Shown here piece after piece: positions 22,598-47,623 of a DNA stretch of 54,280 nucleotides. Origin of the DNA: a virus; the IMG/VR virus record IMGVR_UViG_3300037493_002486, positions 1 through 54,280 of that record. One strand, 5' to 3'. Made by a program: the position numbers and the translations under genes. Position 1 is the first letter of the stretch. The number at the start of each line of letters is the position of its first letter. The notes under the pieces were generated by a model. It was not told where the DNA came from, did not search any database, and worked only from the letters and a program-made list of their open reading frames with translations.

Positions 22598-22758
22598 CGC
22601 GCAACGAAATCACTGGAGACAAAATCCAGTCTAAGGTAAACGAGAACGACAAGTTTGACAAAAACTACGGTGAGATAGACTGGTCCGTTAAACTTGAGGA
22701 CACGCCCGTCAAGCCTGTAGAGGGGGTAAAAAATGAAGATGAATGTAATCCCAATTAA
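22591..22758 (+). CDS. small phage protein with NEITGDKI motif, 55 aa
   Basis: The ATG at 22591 overlaps the preceding stop, and the gene overlaps the radical SAM gene by 26 nt. The start MVARNEITGDKIQSKVNEN fits a small phage protein family in which a NAITGD motif is followed by SK and a Tyr-rich segment, known to me from proteobacterial phages. Function unknown. The overlap makes translation coupling with the radical SAM gene likely. Confidence 0.6.
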   Translation: MVARNEITGDKIQSKVNENDKFDKNYGEIDWSVKLEDTPVKPVEGVKNEDECNPN

Positions 22759-23959
22759 GGATGCATTAAAACAGAATAGTCCTTCGATACTAAAGCCTTC
22801 TGAGAAGAACACCTCTCTGCCATTAAAGCAGTTTTCTGATTACTGGCTAGAGAATATGGCCCTTCCTAATCCATCTGGACTAGGGCAATTGCAGATTACA
22901 TCCATCTGCGATTCAAGGTGTGAGTACTGCTCGAATGATTCAAATGAGTTTCTTACTGGTCGGAATAAGTTTAGAGACCTTGGTGAGATTGAAAAAGTAT
23001 TGTGGGCTATTCCCTTCAGCTTTTCAGGGACCTTTTATTTGAATGAAAGCTTGCCAGGCCGCATCAGTGAAGGGGAGGCATTACTGCACCCTGATATAGA
23101 TAAGGTTATGGCGCTAATACGTGCAAGGTTTCCGTACAACGTAATCAGTATAACCACCAGTGGCTCTCAGTTGTCACATGAAATGGTCGAAAGGATCGCC
23201 CCGTTTACGCCTATAGATATAGTCTATTCCATCCCTTCCTTCCAAGAGAAGCATTGGAACGTTATCTATAAACTAAAAGAAAAACATTTTAATAATTTTA
23301 TTAACTCGTTTGCTTTGATAAGGAATTATCTTTTTACATACCATGCAAACATTACACCGTTGCCGAGTATGGTGGGTTACGATGACTTAGACAACACGAT
23401 TAGATGCTGTAGAGAGGTTGGCATTAGCCATATCAACATCTACGCGCCAGGCTATACAAAATATACTCCAGAAAAAATAATTAGTTCGATGATTTACGAT
23501 AAATACGAATTAAGTAATTTCTTATCGGACATGTCGCGTAAGCATGATGTACTAATTACCTGGCCTTTGGATCCTAACATACCCTTATCCTTTCCGATAA
23601 ATAACCTGTCAGAGCATATGAAAAGTATATATCATCAAGGGCACAGGGAATGTTATTGGATGGTCTCTACCGCCGTTGCATCTAGGTTTAAAGAAGTAAT
23701 GGACAAGATAACAAGGACCATCCCTGTTGAAGCGCATGTAATACCTGTTGAGAACTCGAATTACGGTGGTAATATAGAAGTAGCGGGGCTGTTAGTCGTT
23801 GCGGATATTAAAAAGAAAGTAGATGAATTAAAACTAGAAGGTAAATACATCATTGTTCCAAGTACATTTTTAGATTTGTATGGGTTTGACTTAAATAGTG
23901 AAAACTTTTTAGATTATATTAAAACATCAAGTAATTACTTTTATGTATTTTCGTGGTAA
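22733..23959 (+). CDS. radical SAM enzyme with DUF512-like C-terminal region
   Basis: 408 aa. The [4Fe-4S] cluster motif CxxxCxxC is CDSRCEYC (C59, C63, C66), followed by SEGEALLHPD (112-121), the usual GGE-type SAM-binding motif. The C-terminal part (from V336, VIPVENSNYGGNIEVAGLL) matches the DUF512 pattern that follows radical SAM domains in a family of uncharacterised Fe-S oxidoreductases. No SPASM cysteine cluster is visible, so it is not PqqE. RBS AGAGGGGG. Substrate is unknown; it could act on RNA, a peptide or a host metabolite. The next genes are two small proteins, then pqqA 741 nt downstream. Confidence 0.8.
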   Translation: MKMNVIPIKDALKQNSPSILKPSEKNTSLPLKQFSDYWLENMALPNPSGLGQLQITSICDSRCEYCSNDSNEFLTGRNKFRDLGEIEKVLWAIPFSFSGTFYLNESLPGRISEGEALLHPDIDKVMALIRARFPYNVISITTSGSQLSHEMVERIAPFTPIDIVYSIPSFQEKHWNVIYKLKEKHFNNFINSFALIRNYLFTYHANITPLPSMVGYDDLDNTIRCCREVGISHINIYAPGYTKYTPEKIISSMIYDKYELSNFLSDMSRKHDVLITWPLDPNIPLSFPINNLSEHMKSIYHQGHRECYWMVSTAVASRFKEVMDKITRTIPVEAHVIPVENSNYGGNIEVAGLLVVADIKKKVDELKLEGKYIIVPSTFLDLYGFDLNSENFLDYIKTSSNYFYVFSW

Positions 23960-24334: not shown

Positions 24335-24700
24335 AGCTGTTCAATAAAGTCGCTTTGGCGGGTAAGTAACTATGCTGGAAACCGTTGGTACAACTAGGTT
24401 TGAGGTACATTGAGTGAGCATTGTTTGCGCATATATCACTTTTTTGCGTTTAATTCGTGCGGATCAAAAAAGTTTGTGTGTAATATAATGTGTAAAATTC
24501 TACACAAAACTAAACTATTAGTTTACATCCAAGCAGAAATGTAAACCATGGGACACAGTTTGAGTGTAAATAATGATTATCCGTATGGTGATATGTATAA
24601 AAAAGAGCAAAATCTATACATATACACACGATGTGTATAAAAAACAGTGAAATATGTACACATGTGCATTTTTTGCACATTACTAACTAGGAGATTTACC
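24335..24700. promoter_or_regulatory. palindrome-rich noncoding leader before pqqA
   Basis: 366 nt without a gene. It holds a TATAAT box at 24484-24489 directly followed by the dyad GTGTA-N6-TACAC (24490-24505). Next are GTTTACAT-N10-ATGTAAAC (24521-24546), ATATGTATA-N15-TATACATAT (24591-24623), TATACACA-N3-TGTGTATA (24621-24639) and ATGTGCA-N5-TGCACAT (24662-24680). Such a density of dyads suggests binding sites for one or more dimeric regulators, or DNA/RNA structures. The pqqA start follows with AGGAG at 24689-24693. No clear -35 could be assigned. Confidence 0.5.
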
Positions 24701-24772
24701 ATGTGGACCACACCAGCGGCAACAGAAATGCGCTTCGGCTTTGAAGTGACAATGTACGTAATGAACAAGTAG
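24701..24772 (+). CDS. pqqA: PQQ precursor peptide PqqA
   Basis: 23 codons. The peptide starts MWTTPAATEMRFGF and continues EVTMYVMNK. It matches classical PqqA peptides in length and pattern (MW-K/T-P, the FGFEVT-MY core and a basic end). Glu15 and Tyr19, the pair that PqqE crosslinks to begin PQQ synthesis, are at the same positions as in the 23-residue Klebsiella PqqA. The RBS AGGAG is 7 nt before the ATG, and a strong terminator begins 18 nt after the stop. No pqqBCDE in the window, so host enzymes are needed. An unusual cargo for a phage, likely a metabolic helper; it was too short for routine ORF calling. Confidence 0.93.
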   Translation: MWTTPAATEMRFGFEVTMYVMNK

Positions 24773-24823
24773 TAACATATTTGTTACTAAGCCACCTTCG
24801 GGTGGCTTTTTGTTACATGTAAC
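24772..24823 (+). terminator. rho-independent terminator of pqqA
   Basis: Stem AGCCACC-TTCG-GGTGGCT (24790-24807) followed by TTTTTG. It is nested in two further dyads: GTAACA-N4-TGTTAC (24772-24787) and the perfect palindrome GTTACATGTAAC (24812-24823). The same hairpin core is at 46950-46967. Confidence 0.85.
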
Positions 24824-24848
24824 ACGTATATACTAAATGTATATACCT

Positions 24849-25220
24849 TTAGCGCTCTAAAAAACTCCCTTCCTTCATCTGACGCTCTTCATGGTGCCAT
24901 ATCCGGTGACAGCTGGCACACAACACCACGCATTTTGACTCAATCTCCGCACGGGCCATCTTGTATGCCCCGTTTTGGGCCAGCTCACTTATCTTTCTAT
25001 TGGCTGGGTCTTTTATAACATGGTGGAAGTCCAACGTGGCCGGATGATTCTGTCCGCACTGCACGCACTCCAAGGTGGACTTATACTCTTCCCACTCGGC
25101 CCGCATACGAATCTTCTGCATCCGTATGCGCTCGATGTGCGCTTCCCTGTTGTTGTGGTAGTGTTTACTTGAATACTGCCGTTGTTTTAATCTTCGTTCT
25201 TCCGGATCTTTAATTGGCAT
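24849..25220 (-). CDS. HNH endonuclease
   Basis: The frame is open from 25277, but I favour the ATG at 25220 because it has an AAGGG site about 13 nt upstream and starts MPIKDPEERRLKQRQYS, a typical basic N-terminus; this gives 123 aa. The C-terminal domain has CVQCG, the LDFHHV core and CASCHRIWHH, i.e. the zinc-binding HNH fold. Probably a free-standing homing endonuclease. It stands on the opposite strand next to pqqA. Confidence 0.8.
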   Translation of the reverse strand: MPIKDPEERRLKQRQYSSKHYHNNREAHIERIRMQKIRMRAEWEEYKSTLECVQCGQNHPATLDFHHVIKDPANRKISELAQNGAYKMARAEIESKCVVLCASCHRIWHHEERQMKEGSFLER

Positions 25221-25307
25221 AGTAGAATATACCCTTACAGAAAGACTCTTTATAACATTTATCGTATTAATATGCAAAATATGATAAATATCCTACCAAG
25301 GTGAAAA

Positions 25308-35242: not shown

Positions 35243-35430
35243 GCGCTTTTTCGCGTGCCGGTTACCTAGTCCGGCCAATGCCGGCCAGCATGCCCGCAAA
35301 GGCGCGCCGGTGCACGCTCACGCCGTCCAATTGCCGGCGGCCGGCTTGGTGCCTTGCCTATATAATAACCAAGCCCACGGCGCGTGAGCCGTGGAGCGTG
35401 TCCCGTGTGCCATGGTGCGATACGCGTGGC

Positions 35431-35504
35431 CGGTGCCCGTGTCCGGAAAAAAGCCTGGTCACATTGCCGGTGTCCGTGTCCGGAAAAAAGCCTGGTCACA
35501 TTGC
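35431..35504. repeat. tandem 37-bp direct repeat
   Basis: Copy 1 at 35431-35467 and copy 2 at 35468-35504 differ at one base (position 6). Each copy contains CCGTGTCCGGAAAAAAGCC followed by TGGTCACATTGC. Looks like iterons of the adjoining origin-like region. Confidence 0.75.
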
Positions 35505-36086: not shown

Positions 36087-37556
36087 ATGCTTAGCGTCTC
36101 TGCAGCTGAACAAGCCTCTATTGAGCAGGCTAGATTAGAGCTTCGTCTTCTCCAGATTGAAGCGCAAGAAAAAGCCCGAAAGGACTTCTTGTCCTTTGCA
36201 AAATACGTATGGCCAGAGGCTATCTTTGGCGCGCACCACACAAAAATGGCAGATGCCTTTAACCGTCTAGCAGATGGGACCTTGAAAAGACTGATCGTTA
36301 ACATGCCTCCGCGGCACACCAAGTCTGAGTTCTCGTCCTATCTGCTACCCGCGTTCATCATGGGCCGTAAGCCAAAAACCAAGATCATTCAAGCGACCCA
36401 CACCGGGGAGCTTGCCGTGCGCTTTGGCCGTAAGGTCCGTAACTTGATGGACACAGAAGAGTACAAACAGGTCTTTGATGACGTAGCCCTTCGAGCAGAC
36501 TCCAAGGCCGCCGGTCGGTGGGACACGGACCATGGTGGGGAATACTTTGCTGTCGGTGTGGGCGGCGCGATGACGGGCCGCGGTGCGGACTTGTTGATCA
36601 TTGATGACCCGCACTCGGAGCAGGACGCTTTGTCAGAGCTCGCCATGGAGAACGCATGGGACTGGTACACCTCCGGCCCTCGTCAACGGCTCCAGCCTGG
36701 TGGTGCTATTGTCATTGTGATGACACGTTGGAACACCAAGGACTTAACGGCACGTCTTGTCAAGGCACAGGCCAGCCATAAAGCCGACCGCTGGGAGATT
36801 ATTGAATTCCCTGCAGTCTTGCCTAGCGGCAATCCAATGTGGCCGGGGTTCTGGAAGCTTGAAGAGTTGCTCGCGGTCAAGGCCTCTTTGTCACCGCAAA
36901 AGTGGCAGGCCCAGTGGCAACAACAGCCAACCAACGACGAAGGCGCTATTCTGAAAAGGGACTGGTGGCAAGTGTGGCCTAGCGACGAGGCACCGCCTGT
37001 TGAATACATCATCCAGTCGTATGATACGGCTTATTCCAAGAAAGAGACGGCCGACTACTCTGTAATCACGACCTGGGGCGTGTTCTACCCGGACCAAGAC
37101 TCAGGGCCTAATATCATCTTGTTAGACGTCACGCGAGGTAGGTGGGATTTCCCGGAGCTTAAACGTATTGCCAAGGAAAGCTACGACCAGTGGAAGCCTG
37201 ACAATGTGTTGATCGAGGCCAAAGCGACAGGGATCACGCTTCAGCAGGAGCTAAGGAGAATGGGTATTCCTGTGACAATGTACTCACCGGGTGGCCGACG
37301 TAGCGGACAGGACAAGGTATCGCGTGCGCATTCTGTTGCACCCATCTTGGAGGCTGGTATGGTGTGGGCCCCGGACACGGACTGGGCAGAGGAATTAGTG
37401 GAAGAGTGTGCTGCATTCCCGAATGGCGACAACGATGACATGGTCGACAGCACGACGCAGGCATTGAATAGATTTAGGGCAGGTAATTTTATATCTCTTG
37501 GCAGCGATTTATTAGAGGATGAAAAGCAACAAGATGTTGCATTCGAATACTATTAA
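36087..37556 (+). CDS. terL: terminase large subunit
   Basis: 489 aa. ATPase: adenine region GAHHTKM, Walker A-like PPRHTKS (74-80), Walker B LLIIDDP (169-175), coupling motif MTRWN (about 212). Nuclease domain: SYDTAYS, a central IEAKATG and NDDMVD near residue 459 supply the acidic residues of the RNase H-like fold. The enzyme packages DNA into proheads through the portal. Preceded by AAAGAGAATG and the candidate promoter at 35977. Confidence 0.95.
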   Translation: MLSVSAAEQASIEQARLELRLLQIEAQEKARKDFLSFAKYVWPEAIFGAHHTKMADAFNRLADGTLKRLIVNMPPRHTKSEFSSYLLPAFIMGRKPKTKIIQATHTGELAVRFGRKVRNLMDTEEYKQVFDDVALRADSKAAGRWDTDHGGEYFAVGVGGAMTGRGADLLIIDDPHSEQDALSELAMENAWDWYTSGPRQRLQPGGAIVIVMTRWNTKDLTARLVKAQASHKADRWEIIEFPAVLPSGNPMWPGFWKLEELLAVKASLSPQKWQAQWQQQPTNDEGAILKRDWWQVWPSDEAPPVEYIIQSYDTAYSKKETADYSVITTWGVFYPDQDSGPNIILLDVTRGRWDFPELKRIAKESYDQWKPDNVLIEAKATGITLQQELRRMGIPVTMYSPGGRRSGQDKVSRAHSVAPILEAGMVWAPDTDWAEELVEECAAFPNGDNDDMVDSTTQALNRFRAGNFISLGSDLLEDEKQQDVAFEYY

Positions 37557-37595: not shown

Positions 37596-40556
37596 ATGTT
37601 TAACGACCCACGCGCCAAGGACCTTCTGGCCATGTACCCACGCCGATTAGCCGAAGGCGGTAAAGTAGAATCGCCGTCTACCTTTAATGCAAGAGGGTAT
37701 TTAGACGCATATCCGGATTTACAAAAAGCGTTTGGTAATGACTTAGCCGCTGCAGAACAACACTATACCAATTACGGTATAAAGGAAGGGCGTACAGTTC
37801 CGCCTGTAGAACGGCCTGCAACGACGACCCCATCTTGGCAAGCCCCTGCGGTACAACAACGCAAGACTTCTTTGACTCCGATATATGCCCCTAGTCAAGT
37901 ACCTGCTGGCTATACGGGCAATTACATTGACCCAACAACACTATCCGCGTCACAGCAAAATGCCCGCATTAGGGCGGAACAAGACAAGGCTCTTAGGGAG
38001 GTGATAGACCGAAAAGAACCCGGATCGGTTAGCGGACGTGACTATCGCCAATTGCAACAGGCGGTTCGCAGGTTTGAGGGCCCTCTTAAAGACTTTGGGG
38101 CTCCATTTAATGCAAGAGGCTATTTAGAAGCGAATCCGGATTTAAAAAATGCATTTGGTAATGACGCAGCTGCAGCATGGCAGCATTATTTCCAATTTGG
38201 TAAAAAGGAAGGACGGACAGTCCCCCCTCCATTTAATGCACAAGGGTATCTAGACGCGTATCCGGATTTAAAAAATGCATTTGGTAATAACTTAGCTGCA
38301 GCAGAAGACCACTATTACAATTATGGTAAGAGTGAAGGGCGGACAGTCCCCGTTCCGTTTAATGCACAAAGGTACTTAGATGCATACCCGGATTTAAAAA
38401 AGGCATTTGGCAATGACTTAGCTGCAGCAGAGCAGCACTATATCAATTACGGTAAAAATGAAGGACGGACAACCCCTCCTGCTCCTGATATAACAGATAT
38501 AAATAATCCAATTTTTCGACCTGCCTCTACGGTATCGCCAGTAAATAACCCCACTGCTCCTTCCATAGGAGGCGCATCATACACCGGCCTGTACAATCCG
38601 CTTGTAAATGCTATTACTAATAACGTTAATGCCGTAGTAAAACCGGTGGATCTATCCACCACTCCTACCACGGGAGGGTTATTAAATACTAGCCAATCAC
38701 CTAACACTGTTACAGCGCCTGCAATCACTACTCCTTCCATGGCGTCTGTATATAGCCCTCAGGTTGGTTTTCCGATAGGCAATCAAAGTAATGGATATAG
38801 CATTGCCGACATGATAAAAGGAGGAACATATAACCGCCCTACCTCTGGTTTTGGCATGGCCTCCGTTTTTAACCAAGGCGGTCCAGTAGAAAAAAAGTCC
38901 GGTGAGTCAGAGGCTGCCTCTGACAGTTCCGCCGCGGACCTTGAGCAGTGGCTCTTGAACAACTCACGTGCCCAAGTCGGCCCTGTCGACGTGCAAGAAG
39001 TGCGCTCTGCAAGAGGCCCTGGCAAGTACGACACCCGCCTTAGCAAGAACATAGACGGCCTAGAGGCCTTTGCTGACGTGGACGTTAACGACAAGAAGTT
39101 AAGTCAAGTTGGCGCGAGTTTCGTGGGCCGTGGTCGTATAGGCAATTACGAAGTGCAGTACGTGTACGACCCTGAGACTAAGCAACCTGTGATTACTGGT
39201 GCTATTCGTAGGGAGTTGAGTCCTACTAGTGACGTGTCCGCTGAGGGCGTGTATGTGCCCTCGAGGGACGGCAAGGACTACTACAATGCTGGCGTTCGTT
39301 ACACCAAGCGGTTTGAGAATGGCGGGGAAGTAACAAACGAGAACGACCGAACACTTCGCTCCATTGTCGTTACTCCTACGAATAAAAAAGAAGTAGGCCA
39401 CCCAAATGAATACGTTGACGCCGTAGCGCGTTGGGGACGTAAAGGCCAAGAAGGCTTTGCAAACATGATAGGACTTGGCGAAGAGGTTAAGTTTGCCAAT
39501 GCCATCCCTGAGTTCTACTTTCCTAAGGACGAGCAGCTAGACGGACGTGGCGATGCAATGCGCCATATGTTATTGCAGGCACAGATAGCAAAGAAGCTAG
39601 GCAGGACACCTGCGGAGATTGCAAGCTGGATTCATGAAACCATGTTGACTGGCGGACAGTCAGATGCTGAAAAGGCGATGGACGTGGCCAATGACGCGCG
39701 AGGCATGGACATTGGATTACGGTCCAAGGACAAAGCAGACATGGCCTACCAAGCGCTACAGGCAATCAAGTCTGGACAAGCTAAGACTATTGCAAAGGCG
39801 AAAAAGCCAAAAAAGTTTGAAGATGGCGGGGAAGTAACACCTGCAAAAAGTAGGGTTAAAGAAAACCTTGATGCCATAATTCAAGGGGTAAAAAATGAAA
39901 ACGTCAGTGCTAAGGACGCAGCGTTGTTCATCAATTCGTTTATTCCTGTAACAGGAGATATTCAATCCGCAGCTGAGTTATATCAAGCTTTAAAGGATAA
40001 AGACTACCTAGGAGCAGGGCTTAGCGGGCTTGGATTAATTCCTGGACTTCCTGCTATGGGCGGTGTTATTAAGGGAAGAAAATGGTCAGACAACCCAGGG
40101 GGAAGTTGGTTAGAACATAAAAGAAAACTGGCAGCAGACGAGGGCATGAATGAGTTCGGTACACCTGAAAGAATGGGTACTCTGACAGGAGGCTTTGACG
40201 AAGAGCAAACTATCCCGGTCAGTGTTCTCCGTAATATACGTGGCATGCGAGGAGAACAGGATAATGTAAGGTCTGACTCCATTGAATGGCTTACTAAACA
40301 CATGAGCAAGACTGGAAAATTACCTCCTACTCAAAGTGGTAAAGAATACGCTCCTTTCATTACGGTAGATCAAAGAGGCATACCCTATGTTAACGAAGGC
40401 AATCATAGGATTATGGTTGCGGATAAATTAGGATGGGAAAGCTTACCTGTTGAAATTAGGTACTTTAACGGAGGGGAAGACATGCCTGGTATAATGTCTC
40501 CTAGCAGCATAGAGGCAATGCCCGATTTACCTCGCATGAAGAAAACAAAGAAGTAA
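37596..40556 (+). CDS. large multi-domain, polyvalent-like protein, 986 aa
   Basis: Four repeats of the type FNA-GYLDAYPDL-AFGND-AAA-HY-NYGK-EGRT start at residues 30, 171, 213 and 255 (last three 42 residues apart). A Pro/Thr-rich linker follows to about 430. A middle domain has SARGPGKYDTRLSKN and GVYVPSRDGKDYYNAGVRY; another has MRHMLLQAQIAKKLGR and MDVANDARGMDIGLR; the C-terminus ends in VNEGNHRIMVADKLGWESLP, resembling ParB/sulfiredoxin-like toxin-type domains. A modular protein placed between terL and portal could be packed and injected with DNA. Function is inference. Confidence 0.6.
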   Translation: MFNDPRAKDLLAMYPRRLAEGGKVESPSTFNARGYLDAYPDLQKAFGNDLAAAEQHYTNYGIKEGRTVPPVERPATTTPSWQAPAVQQRKTSLTPIYAPSQVPAGYTGNYIDPTTLSASQQNARIRAEQDKALREVIDRKEPGSVSGRDYRQLQQAVRRFEGPLKDFGAPFNARGYLEANPDLKNAFGNDAAAAWQHYFQFGKKEGRTVPPPFNAQGYLDAYPDLKNAFGNNLAAAEDHYYNYGKSEGRTVPVPFNAQRYLDAYPDLKKAFGNDLAAAEQHYINYGKNEGRTTPPAPDITDINNPIFRPASTVSPVNNPTAPSIGGASYTGLYNPLVNAITNNVNAVVKPVDLSTTPTTGGLLNTSQSPNTVTAPAITTPSMASVYSPQVGFPIGNQSNGYSIADMIKGGTYNRPTSGFGMASVFNQGGPVEKKSGESEAASDSSAADLEQWLLNNSRAQVGPVDVQEVRSARGPGKYDTRLSKNIDGLEAFADVDVNDKKLSQVGASFVGRGRIGNYEVQYVYDPETKQPVITGAIRRELSPTSDVSAEGVYVPSRDGKDYYNAGVRYTKRFENGGEVTNENDRTLRSIVVTPTNKKEVGHPNEYVDAVARWGRKGQEGFANMIGLGEEVKFANAIPEFYFPKDEQLDGRGDAMRHMLLQAQIAKKLGRTPAEIASWIHETMLTGGQSDAEKAMDVANDARGMDIGLRSKDKADMAYQALQAIKSGQAKTIAKAKKPKKFEDGGEVTPAKSRVKENLDAIIQGVKNENVSAKDAALFINSFIPVTGDIQSAAELYQALKDKDYLGAGLSGLGLIPGLPAMGGVIKGRKWSDNPGGSWLEHKRKLAADEGMNEFGTPERMGTLTGGFDEEQTIPVSVLRNIRGMRGEQDNVRSDSIEWLTKHMSKTGKLPPTQSGKEYAPFITVDQRGIPYVNEGNHRIMVADKLGWESLPVEIRYFNGGEDMPGIMSPSSIEAMPDLPRMKKTKK

Positions 40557-40615: not shown

Positions 40616-43015
40616 ATGCCCATTGACAAAGTAGTTAACCAAGCCCCTGAAACATCTATTGAGATTGATCAGGAAGGCCTGCCCGAAATCGAAATAGTCT
40701 TGGAAGACGATGGCGGAGCTACGGTTGAGATAGGCGAAGACGAGGATAACGAGGTAGAATTTTACGCCAACTTGGCGGAAGTGATTGACCAAGACGATTT
40801 AAGCCGTATGTCTATTGACTTACTGGCTTTATTTGACGCCGACAAGGCCTCCCGTAGTGACTGGGAGCAAGTTTATGCCAAGGGCCTTGAGCTGTTAGGC
40901 TTGAAAGTCGAAGAACGCACCAAGCCATTCCGTGGCGCAGCCGGTGCAGTCCACCCAATGTTGACCGAAGCGGTAGTACAGTTCCAATCGCAAGCGATGA
41001 AGGAGCTAATGCCAGCAGACGGACCTGTTAGAACGCAGGTTTTGGGCAAGGAAACAGTAGAAAAACTACAACAAGCGTCACGTGTTCAAGATTTTATGAA
41101 CTACGAACTGACAACCGTGATGGAAGAGTACACTCCAGAGATGGATCAGGCCTTATTCTACCTAGGTTACGGCGGTTCTGTGTTCAAAAAAGTGTATTTT
41201 AATGCACAATTAGACAGAATGGTGAGCAAGTTAGTACTTGCTGACGACTTATACATCCCTTACACCGGCTCAAGCGTCATGAGCCAATGCCCACGGATCA
41301 CGCACCGTGTTCCGATGGACGCAAACGAGTTCAGAAAGCGCGTTGTCGCTGGCGAATACTTGGATTTAGACATCCAAGCAGAGAGTTCTGACCCAAATCA
41401 AGACCAAATTCAAGAAGGCGTGGACCGTCAAACAGGTTTAAGCCCTTCTGACCAAGCCGAAGAAGTATTTTTGCTTGAATTCCAAGTGGATTATGACATT
41501 CCAGGCTTCGAAGACACGGATGAAGACGGTGAACCGACAGGAATTAAGCTTCCTTACGTTGTAACCATTGACGAAGTGAGCGGAAACGTGCTCGGCGTGC
41601 GTCGTAACTGGAAAGAAGGCGACGAATTAAAACGTCGCTGCAATTATTTTGTGCATTATGTGTTGATCGAGGGCCTTGGTGCGTATGGCTTGGGCTTTGT
41701 TCACTTAATCGGCAGCCTATCTAAGACAGCAACGGCTGCATTACGTCAATTAATTGACGCGGGTACGTTCTCTAACCTACCTGCAGGCTTCAAGGCTAAA
41801 GGCGCACGGATCGCGGACACGGATACACCTATCCAACCAGGCGAATGGCGTGACATTGACGCTGGTGGCGCTGAATTGCAGTCATCACTATTACCATTAC
41901 CGTATAAAGAGCCTAGCCAAACACTATTCCAGTTATTAGGCTTCACTGTAGACGCGGGTAAACGCCTTGCAAGTATCGCGGACATGCAAGTTGGTGATGG
42001 CAATCAGAACGCAGCGGTCGGAACGACCATTGCATTGCTTGAGCGTGGCTCAATGGTCATGTCGGCCATCCATAAACGCTTGCACTACGCACAAAAATTG
42101 GAATTCCAACTGCTTGCCAAGGGCTTTGGTGAGTATTTACCTAAAGAGTACCCTTATGACGTGCCGGGTGCCAGTCGTAAGATTAAAAAATCAGACTTTG
42201 ACAACATGGTGGCAGTGCTTCCGGTTGCCGACCCTAACATATTCTCTACAGCACAGCGTATAACCCTTGCACAAACACAGCTACAGCTTGCGCAGGCGGC
42301 CCCACAGATGCATAACATGTACGAGGCATACTACCGGGTCTACACGGCACTAAACGTGCGTGATATCGACGGCATATTGCGTCCACAGAGCTCTCAAATG
42401 CCAAAAGACCCGGCGACAGAGAATGCTGACGTGTTGGATACGATGGAATTGAAAGCATTTGCTGGTCAACAGCATGACGCACACATTGAATCGCACTTAC
42501 GCATGGGCATGTCGCCAATGTTGCAGGCGAACCCTATGTCTGCGTCTATATTGCAAAAACACATCTTGCAACACATCCGTATTAGGGCAGAAGAGGACGT
42601 GGAAGCCGAATTATTCCAAGCATACGGCACGGACCCAGACGGTATGGTGTCAATAATCCAAAAAGAGGGTATGATTGCATTGAAAGTAGCGCAAGCCATG
42701 GCTGACGTTAAAGCAATGCAAGACCAAATCGCTGGTACAGGCCAAGAAGCCACTGACCCGGTTGTGGAACTCAAGAAACAAGAATTGGATCAACGTGCTA
42801 AGGCTGACGCGGCGGATGCAGCGGCTAAGGAGAAGAGTTTGGCACTCCAACAAGAAAAATTAAGACAAGAAGCGCAAGATGATAAGGCCAGCATTGCATC
42901 GCAGGATGCAATCGCAGAGGAACGTGCTGCTATTGCCCGTGAGCGGTTGGCCATTATGGAACAACAGATGTTAGGTCAACAACAGCAGGGTCAAGGAGAT
43001 AACAATGCCGCTTAA
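40616..43015 (+). CDS. portal protein (P22 gp1-like)
   Basis: 799 aa, typical length for podovirus portals of this type. Characteristic segments are KPFRGAAGAVHPMLTEAVVQFQ, DYELTT-like FMNYELTTVMEEY, LFYLGYGGSVFKKVYF, and a DVSGNV-like VTIDEVSGNVLGVRRNW. The C-terminal 150 residues are Gln/Ala-rich coiled coil (KEKSLALQQEKLRQEAQ). Forms the dodecameric DNA entry ring. Overlaps the next gene by 11 nt. Confidence 0.93.
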   Translation: MPIDKVVNQAPETSIEIDQEGLPEIEIVLEDDGGATVEIGEDEDNEVEFYANLAEVIDQDDLSRMSIDLLALFDADKASRSDWEQVYAKGLELLGLKVEERTKPFRGAAGAVHPMLTEAVVQFQSQAMKELMPADGPVRTQVLGKETVEKLQQASRVQDFMNYELTTVMEEYTPEMDQALFYLGYGGSVFKKVYFNAQLDRMVSKLVLADDLYIPYTGSSVMSQCPRITHRVPMDANEFRKRVVAGEYLDLDIQAESSDPNQDQIQEGVDRQTGLSPSDQAEEVFLLEFQVDYDIPGFEDTDEDGEPTGIKLPYVVTIDEVSGNVLGVRRNWKEGDELKRRCNYFVHYVLIEGLGAYGLGFVHLIGSLSKTATAALRQLIDAGTFSNLPAGFKAKGARIADTDTPIQPGEWRDIDAGGAELQSSLLPLPYKEPSQTLFQLLGFTVDAGKRLASIADMQVGDGNQNAAVGTTIALLERGSMVMSAIHKRLHYAQKLEFQLLAKGFGEYLPKEYPYDVPGASRKIKKSDFDNMVAVLPVADPNIFSTAQRITLAQTQLQLAQAAPQMHNMYEAYYRVYTALNVRDIDGILRPQSSQMPKDPATENADVLDTMELKAFAGQQHDAHIESHLRMGMSPMLQANPMSASILQKHILQHIRIRAEEDVEAELFQAYGTDPDGMVSIIQKEGMIALKVAQAMADVKAMQDQIAGTGQEATDPVVELKKQELDQRAKADAADAAAKEKSLALQQEKLRQEAQDDKASIASQDAIAEERAAIARERLAIMEQQMLGQQQQGQGDNNAA

Positions 43016-46015: not shown

Positions 46016-46924
46016 ATGGCAATTTCACGTTCCCAACTAGTAAAAGAACTTGAGCCGGGTCTGAACGCATTGTTCGGCATGGAATACAAGGGTTACGAAA
46101 AAGAGCACGAGCAAATATACGATACCGAAACTTCTGACCGTGCGTTTGAAGAAGAGGTAATGTTGTCTGGCTTCGGTGAAGCTCCTGTTAAAACTGAGGG
46201 TGCTGGCGTTTCATACGACAATGCTCAAGAAGTTTACACAGCGCGTTACACACACGAAACCATTGCTTTGGCTTATTCATTAACTGAAGAAGCTGTTGAA
46301 GATAACTTGTATGCATCACTTGCTGCTCGTTACACCAAAGCATTAGCTCGTTCAATGGCAACAACAAAACAAATCAAAGCAGCAGCCGTATTAAACAATG
46401 CGTTTACTACAGCAATCGGCGGCGACGGCAAACCTTTGTGTGCAACTGACCATCCAACATTGTCTGGTCCAGATCTACGCAACGAATTGTCAACTCCAGC
46501 TGACTTAAGCGAAACTTCACTTGAGCAAGCTTTGATTGACATCGCAGCATTCACTGATGAGCGTGGTTTGAAAATCGCGGTTCGTGGTTTGAAATTGATT
46601 GTTCCAAAAGAACTACAATTCACCTCTGATCGTATTTTGAAATCTACTCTACGTGTTGGTACTGCTGATAACGATATCAACGCTATCAAAAACATGGGTA
46701 TGGTTCCACAAGGCTACACAGTCAACCATTACCTAACAGACCCAGACGCTTGGTTCATCAAAACTGATGCTCCTAACGGCATGAAAATGTTTGAACGTGT
46801 TGCGTTCAAAACTGGTTTTGAAGGTGATTTTGATACAGGTAACGTACGTTACAAAGCACGTGAGCGTTATAGCTTCGGTTACAGCGATCCACGCGGTATC
46901 TTCGGTTCACCAGGTACACCTTAA
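46016..46924 (+). CDS. major capsid protein
   Basis: 302 aa, HK97-fold candidate. Starts MAISRSQLVKELEPGLNALFG, with EGAGVSYDNAQEVYTARYTH and AYSLTEEAVEDNLYASLAARY typical of this capsid group (Mu-like/short-tail phages). No protease domain is seen, so no maturation cleavage can be inferred. Begins 2 nt after the decoration gene stop. Confidence 0.9.
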   Translation: MAISRSQLVKELEPGLNALFGMEYKGYEKEHEQIYDTETSDRAFEEEVMLSGFGEAPVKTEGAGVSYDNAQEVYTARYTHETIALAYSLTEEAVEDNLYASLAARYTKALARSMATTKQIKAAAVLNNAFTTAIGGDGKPLCATDHPTLSGPDLRNELSTPADLSETSLEQALIDIAAFTDERGLKIAVRGLKLIVPKELQFTSDRILKSTLRVGTADNDINAIKNMGMVPQGYTVNHYLTDPDAWFIKTDAPNGMKMFERVAFKTGFEGDFDTGNVRYKARERYSFGYSDPRGIFGSPGTP

Positions 46925-47032: not shown

Positions 47033-47623
47033 ATGCCATACGCTAAGGACTATATTGGAATATATAAAATTGTTAATAGCGTCACAGGAAAGTGTTATGT
47101 AGGACAATCGCAACGCGTTAAAAAAAGAATAAAAGAGCATTTTAGACTACTTAATTTAAATAAACACTCTAATGGACATCTTCAACACTCATTCAATAAA
47201 TATGGAAAAGAAGCTTTTAAGGGTCACCTTGAAGTAATATGCGAAGACGTAAATGATTTAGACACGCTTGAAGAAGCTTTTTTAGTTAAAAAAGCATGGT
47301 TTGACGAAGAAGTTGTATATAACATTGCTAATTTTGCTAAAGCGCCTATGCGCGGCAAGACCCACACTGAAGAAACACGAAAAAAGATAAAAGAAACAAA
47401 ATTACGGTCTAATTTTGACTACACTGATACGGAATGGAGAGAAAAACTACGGTTAGGACAGGCAAGTAGATTTTTTTCAGACAAAGTATTTGTTGCAAAT
47501 CTTAAGTATATCCTTGATAATCCTACAATGAGTTATGCAGAACGCGGGCGTCATTTGGGAAAGGATACATCATCTACCCGCAAATTATTTATTAAATATA
47601 AACATTTACAAGGAATTATATAA
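47033..47623 (+). CDS. GIY-YIG endonuclease (homing type)
   Basis: 196 aa. The nuclease motif is YIGIYKIVN, then KCYVGQSQRVKKRIKEHF and a NKYGKEAFKGHLEV block with LEEAFLVKKAWF. The middle contains a KTHTEETRKKIKETKLR repeat (NUMOD-type helix) and a basic C-terminus. Such free-standing homing endonucleases spread between related phages. It is isolated by an upstream terminator and promoter. The stop overlaps the next start (TAATG). RBS AAAGGAG. Confidence 0.88.
   Translation: MPYAKDYIGIYKIVNSVTGKCYVGQSQRVKKRIKEHFRLLNLNKHSNGHLQHSFNKYGKEAFKGHLEVICEDVNDLDTLEEAFLVKKAWFDEEVVYNIANFAKAPMRGKTHTEETRKKIKETKLRSNFDYTDTEWREKLRLGQASRFFSDKVFVANLKYILDNPTMSYAERGRHLGKDTSSTRKLFIKYKHLQGII

What the first reader, a model, noticed from the sequence alone, without database searches (positions are those of the whole stretch)
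24701..24772. A pqqA gene carried by a phage
The 23-codon gene matches classical PqqA and keeps Glu15 and Tyr19, the residues fused to make the cofactor PQQ. PQQ supply can be set by PqqA dose, so the phage may raise flux through PQQ-dependent dehydrogenases (for example methanol dehydrogenase) during infection, much as other phages carry photosynthesis genes. An alternative is that the peptide competes for PqqD/PqqE. The gene is too short for usual annotation, so such genes may be overlooked elsewhere. I cannot tell whether phage pqqA has been described.
Basis: partly seen in the sequence, partly recalled or inferred. Interest (0 to 1): 0.92.

Follow-up and report, generated by a model that had tools for sequence, protein, structure and literature searches.

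The report
Phages carrying the PQQ precursor gene
This virus of methanol-eating bacteria carries a tiny gene for PqqA, the peptide that the host cuts up to build the cofactor PQQ; the same gene, usually missed by annotators, is present in every cultured virus of these bacteria that we could check and in well over a hundred uncultured ones, often behind a conserved control sequence that we found nowhere else.

Summary
Window 24701-24772 encodes a genuine 23-aa PqqA (above the Pfam and NCBIfam cut-offs) with Glu15 and Tyr19, a Shine-Dalgarno site and a terminator, inside a tailed-phage genome. The peptide is identical to the commonest PqqA of Methylophilaceae, the likely hosts. Phage pqqA is not new: one uncultured Lake Baikal phage was reported in 2020. 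The real finding is larger. All nine cultured Methylophilales phages found (at least four genome types) carry pqqA, not annotated as such, including P19250A, which was published as lacking it. At least 120 IMG/VR contigs carry it (roughly 1,400 by extrapolation). In 120 hits found without fixing Glu15 or Tyr19, both are always kept. No pqqE was found in 48 viral records. In the window and relatives, pqqA follows a conserved ~85-nt leader containing a covarying stem. A search with the leader alone found PqqA in 82 of 84 assessable instances, and the leader is absent from 187 host genomes. Leader and gene sit at several unrelated genome positions, often beside an HNH endonuclease. Best explanation: the phage supplies the one PQQ-pathway component consumed per cofactor molecule, keeping methanol dehydrogenase charged during infection. 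The function is inferred, not tested.

The parts
24701..24772 (+). pqqA, 23-aa PqqA peptide with Glu15 and Tyr19
   Evidence: PF08042 E=3e-10, TIGR02107 over cut-off; identical to the commonest Methylophilaceae PqqA and to that of cultured phage P19250A
24689..24693 (+). Shine-Dalgarno AGGAG, 7 nt before the ATG
   Evidence: sequence; 134 of 143 viral pqqA have a 5-7 nt SD match against about 7% of random ATGs
24567..24648 (+). conserved phage pqqA leader (promoter/operator or RNA element)
   Evidence: 75-85% identical to the region upstream of pqqA in other phages; in the loci first held every match is upstream of pqqA, with no host hit; pattern scan of IMG/VR and of 187 host genomes
24621..24639 (+). 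inverted repeat TATACACA-CGA-TGTGTATA inside the leader; stem conserved by paired changes
   Evidence: fold_alignment; two pairs covary in 34 distinct sequences, 0 of 2000 shuffles
24662..24680 (+). second inverted repeat ATGTGCA-TTTTT-TGCACAT before the SD, apparently specific to this phage
   Evidence: sequence and centroid fold; absent from the aligned relatives
24789..24812 (+). intrinsic terminator directly after pqqA
   Evidence: terminator scan; terminators follow 63 of 144 viral pqqA against 74 of 1330 other ORFs
24849..25277 (-). HNH endonuclease gene, convergent with pqqA; related HNH genes lie downstream of pqqA in other leader-bearing phages
   Evidence: PHROG 3106 E=5.8e-21; flank clustering with 18 other downstream genes
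22733..23959 (+). radical SAM + DUF512 protein upstream of the cassette; not PqqE and probably unrelated to PQQ
   Evidence: PF04055 and PF04459 over cut-off; no PqqE match; one relative in IMG/VR, none in cultured phages
36087..37556 (+). terminase large subunit (phage hallmark)
   Evidence: PHROG 38 E=9.5e-114
40616..43015 (+). portal protein (phage hallmark)
   Evidence: PHROG 1216 E=4.2e-33
46016..46924 (+). major head protein; in relatives the pqqA cassette sits directly behind this gene
   Evidence: PHROG 371; 63-67% identical homologues next to pqqA in L048, L052, L104, L119, L133

Best explanation
The gene is a stand-alone metabolic gene of a lytic-type phage of methanol-oxidising Methylophilaceae. 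It encodes the substrate peptide of PQQ synthesis and nothing else of the pathway. Each PQQ molecule uses up one PqqA, whereas the host's PqqB-E enzymes are catalytic and can outlast host shut-off. So the phage needs to bring only the consumable: host PqqD/PqqE would crosslink Glu15 and Tyr19 of the phage peptide, and the PQQ made would keep the PQQ-dependent methanol dehydrogenase working while virions are built. The gene is carried as a compact cassette (dedicated leader, SD, pqqA, terminator, often an HNH endonuclease beside it) that sits at different genome positions in different phages. Shown: gene identity, phage location, conservation, leader linkage, different positions, multi-copy pqqA in hosts. 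Inferred: host of this phage, lytic lifestyle, expression during infection, use by host enzymes, benefit through methanol dehydrogenase.
For: Family membership over curated cut-offs. Peptide identical to 56 of 131 host PqqA. All nine cultured Methylophilales phages found carry it, and essentially no other of 50,697 phage records do, also when searched with a Pseudomonas-type PqqA. In 120 IMG/VR hits found without fixing Glu15 or Tyr19, all keep both. pN/pS is 0.19 over 130 distinct viral sequences, of which only two are shared with hosts. No PqqE over cut-off in 48 viral records, and one pqqA in each. Dedicated leader, absent from 187 host genomes. Terminators 44% against 5.6%. Hosts: 120 of 120 Methylophilaceae genomes have pqqA, median 4 copies, range 1-12, with single pqqBCDE in studied strains (PMC4109929). 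xoxF methanol dehydrogenase is typically the most abundant transcript in an OM43 isolate (PMC5120137).
Against: No expression, PQQ or fitness data. The host of this particular phage is inferred, not observed. In Acetobacter, raising pqqAB alone raised PQQ only 29% (PMC7936290), so precursor may not be limiting. Hosts already hold several pqqA copies. pN/pS is biased towards constraint because the search patterns fixed some residues. No sigma-70-like promoter is enriched before viral pqqA.
Confidence: 0.74

Rival explanations
1. The peptide is a real PqqA but its benefit is not through methanol dehydrogenase: extra PQQ (or a PqqA-derived product) serves another purpose, such as redox protection, another PQQ enzyme, or signalling.
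For: PQQ is a general redox cofactor. A separate group of enterobacterial-type temperate phages also carries pqqA at a prophage that interrupts the PQQ importer gene pqqU, a setting without methanol oxidation.
Against: In cultured phages the gene is confined to phages of methylotrophs, whose main PQQ enzyme is methanol dehydrogenase.
Confidence: 0.12
2. The cassette is selfish: an HNH endonuclease and a compact leader-gene-terminator unit spread together, and pqqA gives the phage little benefit.
For: HNH genes of one family sit beside pqqA in 19 cases including the window; the cassette is found at unrelated positions; two contigs keep the leader but have lost pqqA (L327, L337).
Against: Most pqqA-bearing phages have other flanks (126 families among 271 flank proteins); the peptide is strongly conserved and restricted to methylophages among cultured phages.
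Confidence: 0.07
3. The phage peptide is a decoy that ties up PqqD/PqqE and lowers host PQQ.
For: An over-supplied substrate could titrate PqqD; PQQ blocks infection by one PqqU-binding coliphage (PMC12124388), so lowering PQQ can in principle suit a phage.
Against: The peptide is identical to the host's own substrate and always keeps both crosslinked residues, even where they were not fixed in the search; a decoy would be expected to lose one of them.
Confidence: 0.05
4. The gene is host DNA: a bacterial contig, a prophage flank or a misassembly.
For: Such cases exist: the record 'Acinetobacter phage MD-2021a' looks like bacterial DNA with a whole pqq operon.
Against: Phage hallmark genes on both sides in the window, nine cultured phages with the same gene, a leader absent from hosts, only 2 of 130 nucleotide sequences shared with hosts.
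Confidence: 0.01

Closest known systems
PqqA in Lake Baikal phage population VP_266 (Coutinho et al. 2020, PMC7678222)
   Same: Same peptide family in an uncultured phage assigned to Methylophilaceae; same proposed role of feeding PQQ to methanol dehydrogenase.
   Different: One T4-like metagenomic population; VP_266 and its companion VP_139 also encode methanol dehydrogenase. The paper states that P19250A has none of these genes, whereas P19250A carries a PqqA identical to the window's. No leader, cassette, survey or conservation test was reported in the passages read.
Chromosomal pqqA of Methylophilaceae (PF08042 / TIGR02107)
   Same: Identical 23-aa peptide; hosts carry several scattered copies.
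   Different: Host genomes lack the phage leader (0 of 187), and nucleotide sequences differ.
psbA in cyanophages (from general knowledge)
   Different: psbA encodes a protein that is damaged and replaced; PqqA is a substrate peptide converted into a cofactor. The analogy is inference.
Lambdoid-type prophages in pqqU/yncD carrying pqqA (found here)
   Same: Phage-borne stand-alone pqqA with SD and terminator.
   Different: Temperate, enterobacterial-type PqqA (MWKKPAFIDMRLGLEVTLYISNR), next to the attachment site inside the host PQQ-importer gene; no shared leader seen.

Membership tests
PqqA, PQQ precursor peptide (PF08042, TIGR02107) | Match over the curated family cut-off | tested here: met
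   40.3 bits against 21.1; 38.8 against 20
PqqA, PQQ precursor peptide (PF08042, TIGR02107) | Glu and Tyr four positions apart (E-V-T-x-Y), the residues joined to make PQQ | tested here: met
   Glu15 and Tyr19 in the window; 120 of 120 related viral peptides when these positions were not fixed
PqqA, PQQ precursor peptide (PF08042, TIGR02107) | Free-standing ORF of about 22-30 codons with its own start and ribosome-binding site | tested here: met
   23 codons, AGGAG 7 nt upstream
PqqA, PQQ precursor peptide (PF08042, TIGR02107) | Converted to PQQ by the PqqB-PqqF/G enzymes | not testable with these tools
   Needs complementation of a pqqA-null strain and a PQQ assay
Phage auxiliary metabolic gene | Lies in a phage genome and is not a structural or replication gene | tested here: met
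   Phage hallmarks around it; present in cultured phages
Phage auxiliary metabolic gene | Homologue in the host's metabolism | tested here: met
   pqqA in 120 of 120 Methylophilaceae genomes
Phage auxiliary metabolic gene | Expressed in infection and alters host metabolism to the phage's benefit | not testable with these tools
   No transcript or fitness data
PqqE (for the adjacent radical SAM gene 22733-23959) | Match to TIGR02109 / SPASM-type PqqE | tested here: not met
   No TIGR02109 match; radical SAM + DUF512 instead
Known structured RNA (for the leader) | Match to an Rfam family | tested here: not met
   No Rfam match at gathering score in the window

The most novel reading that the evidence does not exclude
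Phages of methylotrophs share a mobile, phage-only regulatory cassette whose one dedicated cargo is pqqA: a leader with a covarying stem, acting as an RNA element or a phage operator, drives timed over-supply of the consumable precursor of a host cofactor, and this precursor is required for efficient infection of methanol-oxidising hosts.
Probability: 0.4. Interest if true: 0.85.

Novelty: new variant of a known kind. Interest (0 to 1): 0.74.

Why it matters
Coastal-ocean and lake methanol oxidation depends on PQQ enzymes of exactly these bacteria. If every methylophage brings pqqA, PQQ supply is likely a bottleneck of infection, which can be tested in existing cultured phage-host pairs. It also suggests a rule for viral metabolic genes: take the part that is consumed, not the enzymes. 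Genes this short fall below usual annotation limits; here the gene is unannotated or overlapped by a doubtful reverse-strand ORF even in published genomes, so surveys of viral metabolism miss it. The pqqA-linked leader is a ready marker for methylophages.

Tried and rejected
Adjacent radical SAM gene as a phage PqqE: rejected, DUF512-type with no PqqE match, and it was not found to accompany pqqA elsewhere. Phage-borne PqqE: none over cut-off in 48 viral records (one weak 84-residue radical SAM match in the L070 record). Sigma-70 promoter before viral pqqA: no enrichment over shuffles, 9% against 7%. Rfam match for the leader: none. 'Acinetobacter phage MD-2021a' hit: looks like bacterial DNA with the whole pqq operon, excluded. 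A first leader pattern had a spacing error and found 2 hits; the corrected one found 86. Searching 369 genomes for the host of the pqqU prophage found nothing useful, nor did E. coli genomes. No tree of pqqA was built: 69 nt with near-saturated synonymous sites cannot resolve host-to-phage transfers.

Full report
1. THE OBSERVATION. The sequence at 24701-24772 is as described: MWTTPAATEMRFGFEVTMYVMNK*, 40.3 bits to PF08042 PqqA (cut-off 21.1) and 38.8 bits to the equivalog TIGR02107 (cut-off 20). Glu15 and Tyr19, the two residues that are joined to make PQQ, are present. An AGGAG site precedes the ATG by 7 nt, and a hairpin followed by a T-run comes 16 nt after the stop. The record is an IMG/VR virus entry with terminase, portal, head, tape measure, polymerase, primase and helicase genes. 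It is a phage genome or a large part of one; no end repeat was found.

2. WHO ELSE HAS IT. A tblastn of the 23 residues against 50,697 phage records gave 12 records. Nine are cultured phages of Methylophilales: P19250A (identical peptide), MEP301, Venkman, MEP401, MEP402 and four Melnitz isolates. One is an uncultured podovirus from Manatee Spring. Two are an 'Acinetobacter phage' entry that looks like bacterial DNA with the whole pqq operon. According to the 2023 OM43-phage paper, Venkman, MEP301 and Melnitz fall into three distinct groups and MEP401/402 into the Zobellviridae (PMC10580990): at least four genome types, and the OM43 isolates listed there all carry the gene. In none of the records opened is it annotated as pqqA: it lies in unannotated gaps, or under a 'hypothetical protein' drawn on the opposite strand in Melnitz and the Manatee Spring phage. 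The passages searched in the cultured-phage papers do not mention PqqA. The Lake Baikal paper says P19250A encodes none of the metabolic genes it reports, PqqA among them; the genome contradicts this.

3. UNCULTURED PHAGES. A sub-pattern with one fixed codon, matching 10 of those 120, also reached 120 rows. If the scan order is the same, this implies roughly 1,400 contigs or more; it is an extrapolation. All 100 further loci held from that scan were proper small ORFs, 97 with an SD-like site. A third pattern left Glu15 and Tyr19 free: 120 of 120 hits keep Glu and Tyr. Over 130 distinct viral sequences pN/pS is 0.19, with synonymous sites near saturation; only two sequences are shared with the host set. 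The patterns fix some residues, so this ratio is biased towards constraint. PqqE is over cut-off in 0 of 48 viral records, and each has exactly one pqqA. The window's terminase has relatives above 50% identity in only 2 of 34 pqqA-bearing records, although many of these are fragments. The 271 proteins flanking viral pqqA fall into 126 families.

4. HOSTS. The peptide of the window equals the commonest PqqA in the genome scan (56 of 131), whose hits are nearly all Methylophilaceae or less precisely named relatives. All 120 Methylophilaceae genomes sampled have pqqA, with median 4 copies and range 1-12. Multi-copy pqqA with single pqqBCDE was already known in this family (PMC4109929). Streamlined genomes of about 1.3 Mb or less also keep 1-3 copies, which suggests, but does not prove, that precursor dose matters.

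5. THE LEADER. The 82 nt at 24567-24648 are 75-85% identical to the region before pqqA in other phages with different neighbours, and cultured P19250A has a related element; every match in the viral loci then held lies upstream of pqqA, and none lies upstream of host pqqA. Adding P19250A gives 87 instances. Three are cut by a contig end. Of the 84 others, 81 have a PqqA ORF starting 18-42 nt downstream, one (L328) has a variant PqqA (GMEITAY, Glu and Tyr kept), and two (L327, L337) have lost pqqA, with the sequence behind the gap matching that behind pqqA in L071. The same pattern is absent from 187 Methylophilaceae genomes. The window itself has a loop one base shorter, so the pattern does not count it. 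Within 34 distinct leader sequences a stem is kept by paired changes at two positions (C-G 29, T-A 4, one T-G; G-C 18, A-T 14, two mismatches; 0 of 2000 shuffles as good). A protein-binding palindrome would show the same pattern, so this does not decide between an RNA hairpin and a DNA operator. Rfam has no match.

6. CASSETTE AND POSITIONS. Leader-bearing pqqA genes sit in several neighbourhoods: beside a DUF3310-like gene (33 loci), directly behind the major head protein (22), before an HNH endonuclease (19, including the window's own HNH gene at 24849-25277), and others. In the window the cassette lies between a radical SAM/DUF512 gene and the HNH gene. In related phages with 63-67% identical head proteins it lies behind that head gene, after a terminator-like hairpin. 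Terminators follow 44% of viral pqqA against 5.6% of other viral ORFs by the same rule. Transfer as a unit is the natural reading; that the HNH enzyme moves it is a guess.

7. MECHANISM. PqqA is the substrate, not an enzyme, of PQQ synthesis (established pathway; PMC12124388): one peptide is consumed per PQQ. The simplest account is that host PqqB-E persist after infection while host pqqA messages disappear, so the phage restores the consumable. In an OM43 isolate the methanol dehydrogenase gene xoxF was reported as the most abundant transcript (PMC5120137), so demand for PQQ is plausible. A moderating fact: in Acetobacter, extra pqqAB gave only 29% more PQQ while the full cluster gave eightfold (PMC7936290). 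Whether precursor or enzyme limits PQQ in Methylophilaceae is unknown.

8. A SECOND PHAGE GROUP WITH pqqA. Records L276, L278, L280-L282, L284, L285, L287 and L290-L292 carry an enterobacterial-type PqqA, in most of them a few hundred bases from one record end. In the eight of these aligned, an interrupted TonB-receptor gene lies at that end. The joined flanks read ...GLQIQNRQNYAQDLQLS, matching E. coli YncD, renamed PqqU, the PQQ importer (PDB 6v81 at E=9e-27, 9c4o at 1.6e-21). The left flank is from L290 and the right flank from L306 (the L291 record), with AGACAGAACTA shared by both sides of the L291 record. A tyrosine integrase lies at the other end of that record, and a lambda gpJ-type tail tip protein lies inside L290. 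So a temperate phage breaks the PQQ-import gene and brings pqqA. PqqU is also a receptor for several coliphages (PMC12124388), so exclusion of other phages is a possible gain. This was followed only partly; the host species was not identified.

9. NOVELTY. Phage pqqA as such is published for one uncultured population (PMC7678222) and listed in a 2026 survey (PMC13188868). New here, as far as the searched library shows: its presence in all cultured Methylophilales phages found, its breadth in IMG/VR, the unbiased Glu/Tyr test, the leader that was found only in phages and only with pqqA as cargo, the cassette at several positions, and the pqqU prophages. Only open-licence papers could be searched, so prior mention elsewhere cannot be excluded.

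Noticed in passing
L290:1-560, L291, L292, L281, L282, L284, L280, L276; L306:1-1424: Lambdoid-type temperate phages integrated inside pqqU/yncD (the PQQ importer gene) with an enterobacterial-type pqqA just inside the attachment site; the joined flanks read on as YncD.
   Followed up: partly
window 22733-23959: Radical SAM + DUF512 protein in a phage; one relative in IMG/VR (L293, 47% identity), none in 50,697 phage records; function unknown.
   Followed up: partly
L279 (265,895-base record), L289, L283, L286: Alphaproteobacterial-type PqqA (GMEVTSY) in large phage-like records, one with a terminase (L283 record), suggesting phages of other PQQ-making bacteria also carry it.
   Followed up: no
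L327, L337: The pqqA leader is kept but pqqA is deleted, with the flank behind the gap as in L071: natural pqqA-less relatives useful for comparison.
   Followed up: no
CAKLQF020000010.1 (L273): A record named Acinetobacter phage MD-2021a holds polyphosphate kinase and a whole pqqABCDE operon; it looks like bacterial DNA in a phage collection.
   Followed up: no
L271:3461-3556 (Melnitz) and L272:2067-2195: Deposited 'hypothetical protein' genes overlap pqqA on the opposite strand and are probably spurious.
   Followed up: yes
window 24335-24700: About 366 nt without an evident gene, with several inverted repeats; the fold of 24420-24830 is more stable than shuffles (z = -3.0). Besides the leader, parts match upstream regions of L062, L064, L087 and L091, some in reverse orientation.
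   Followed up: partly
window 38101-38478 and 35429-35502: 126-nt tandem repeats inside the 986-aa gene with a DUF6973 domain, and a 37-nt tandem duplication; possible sites of variation.
   Followed up: no
L275 (L070 record, 47246-47494): A different radical SAM ORF (385 aa) with a weak, partial PqqE-like match in a pqqA-bearing phage; below the family cut-off.
   Followed up: no
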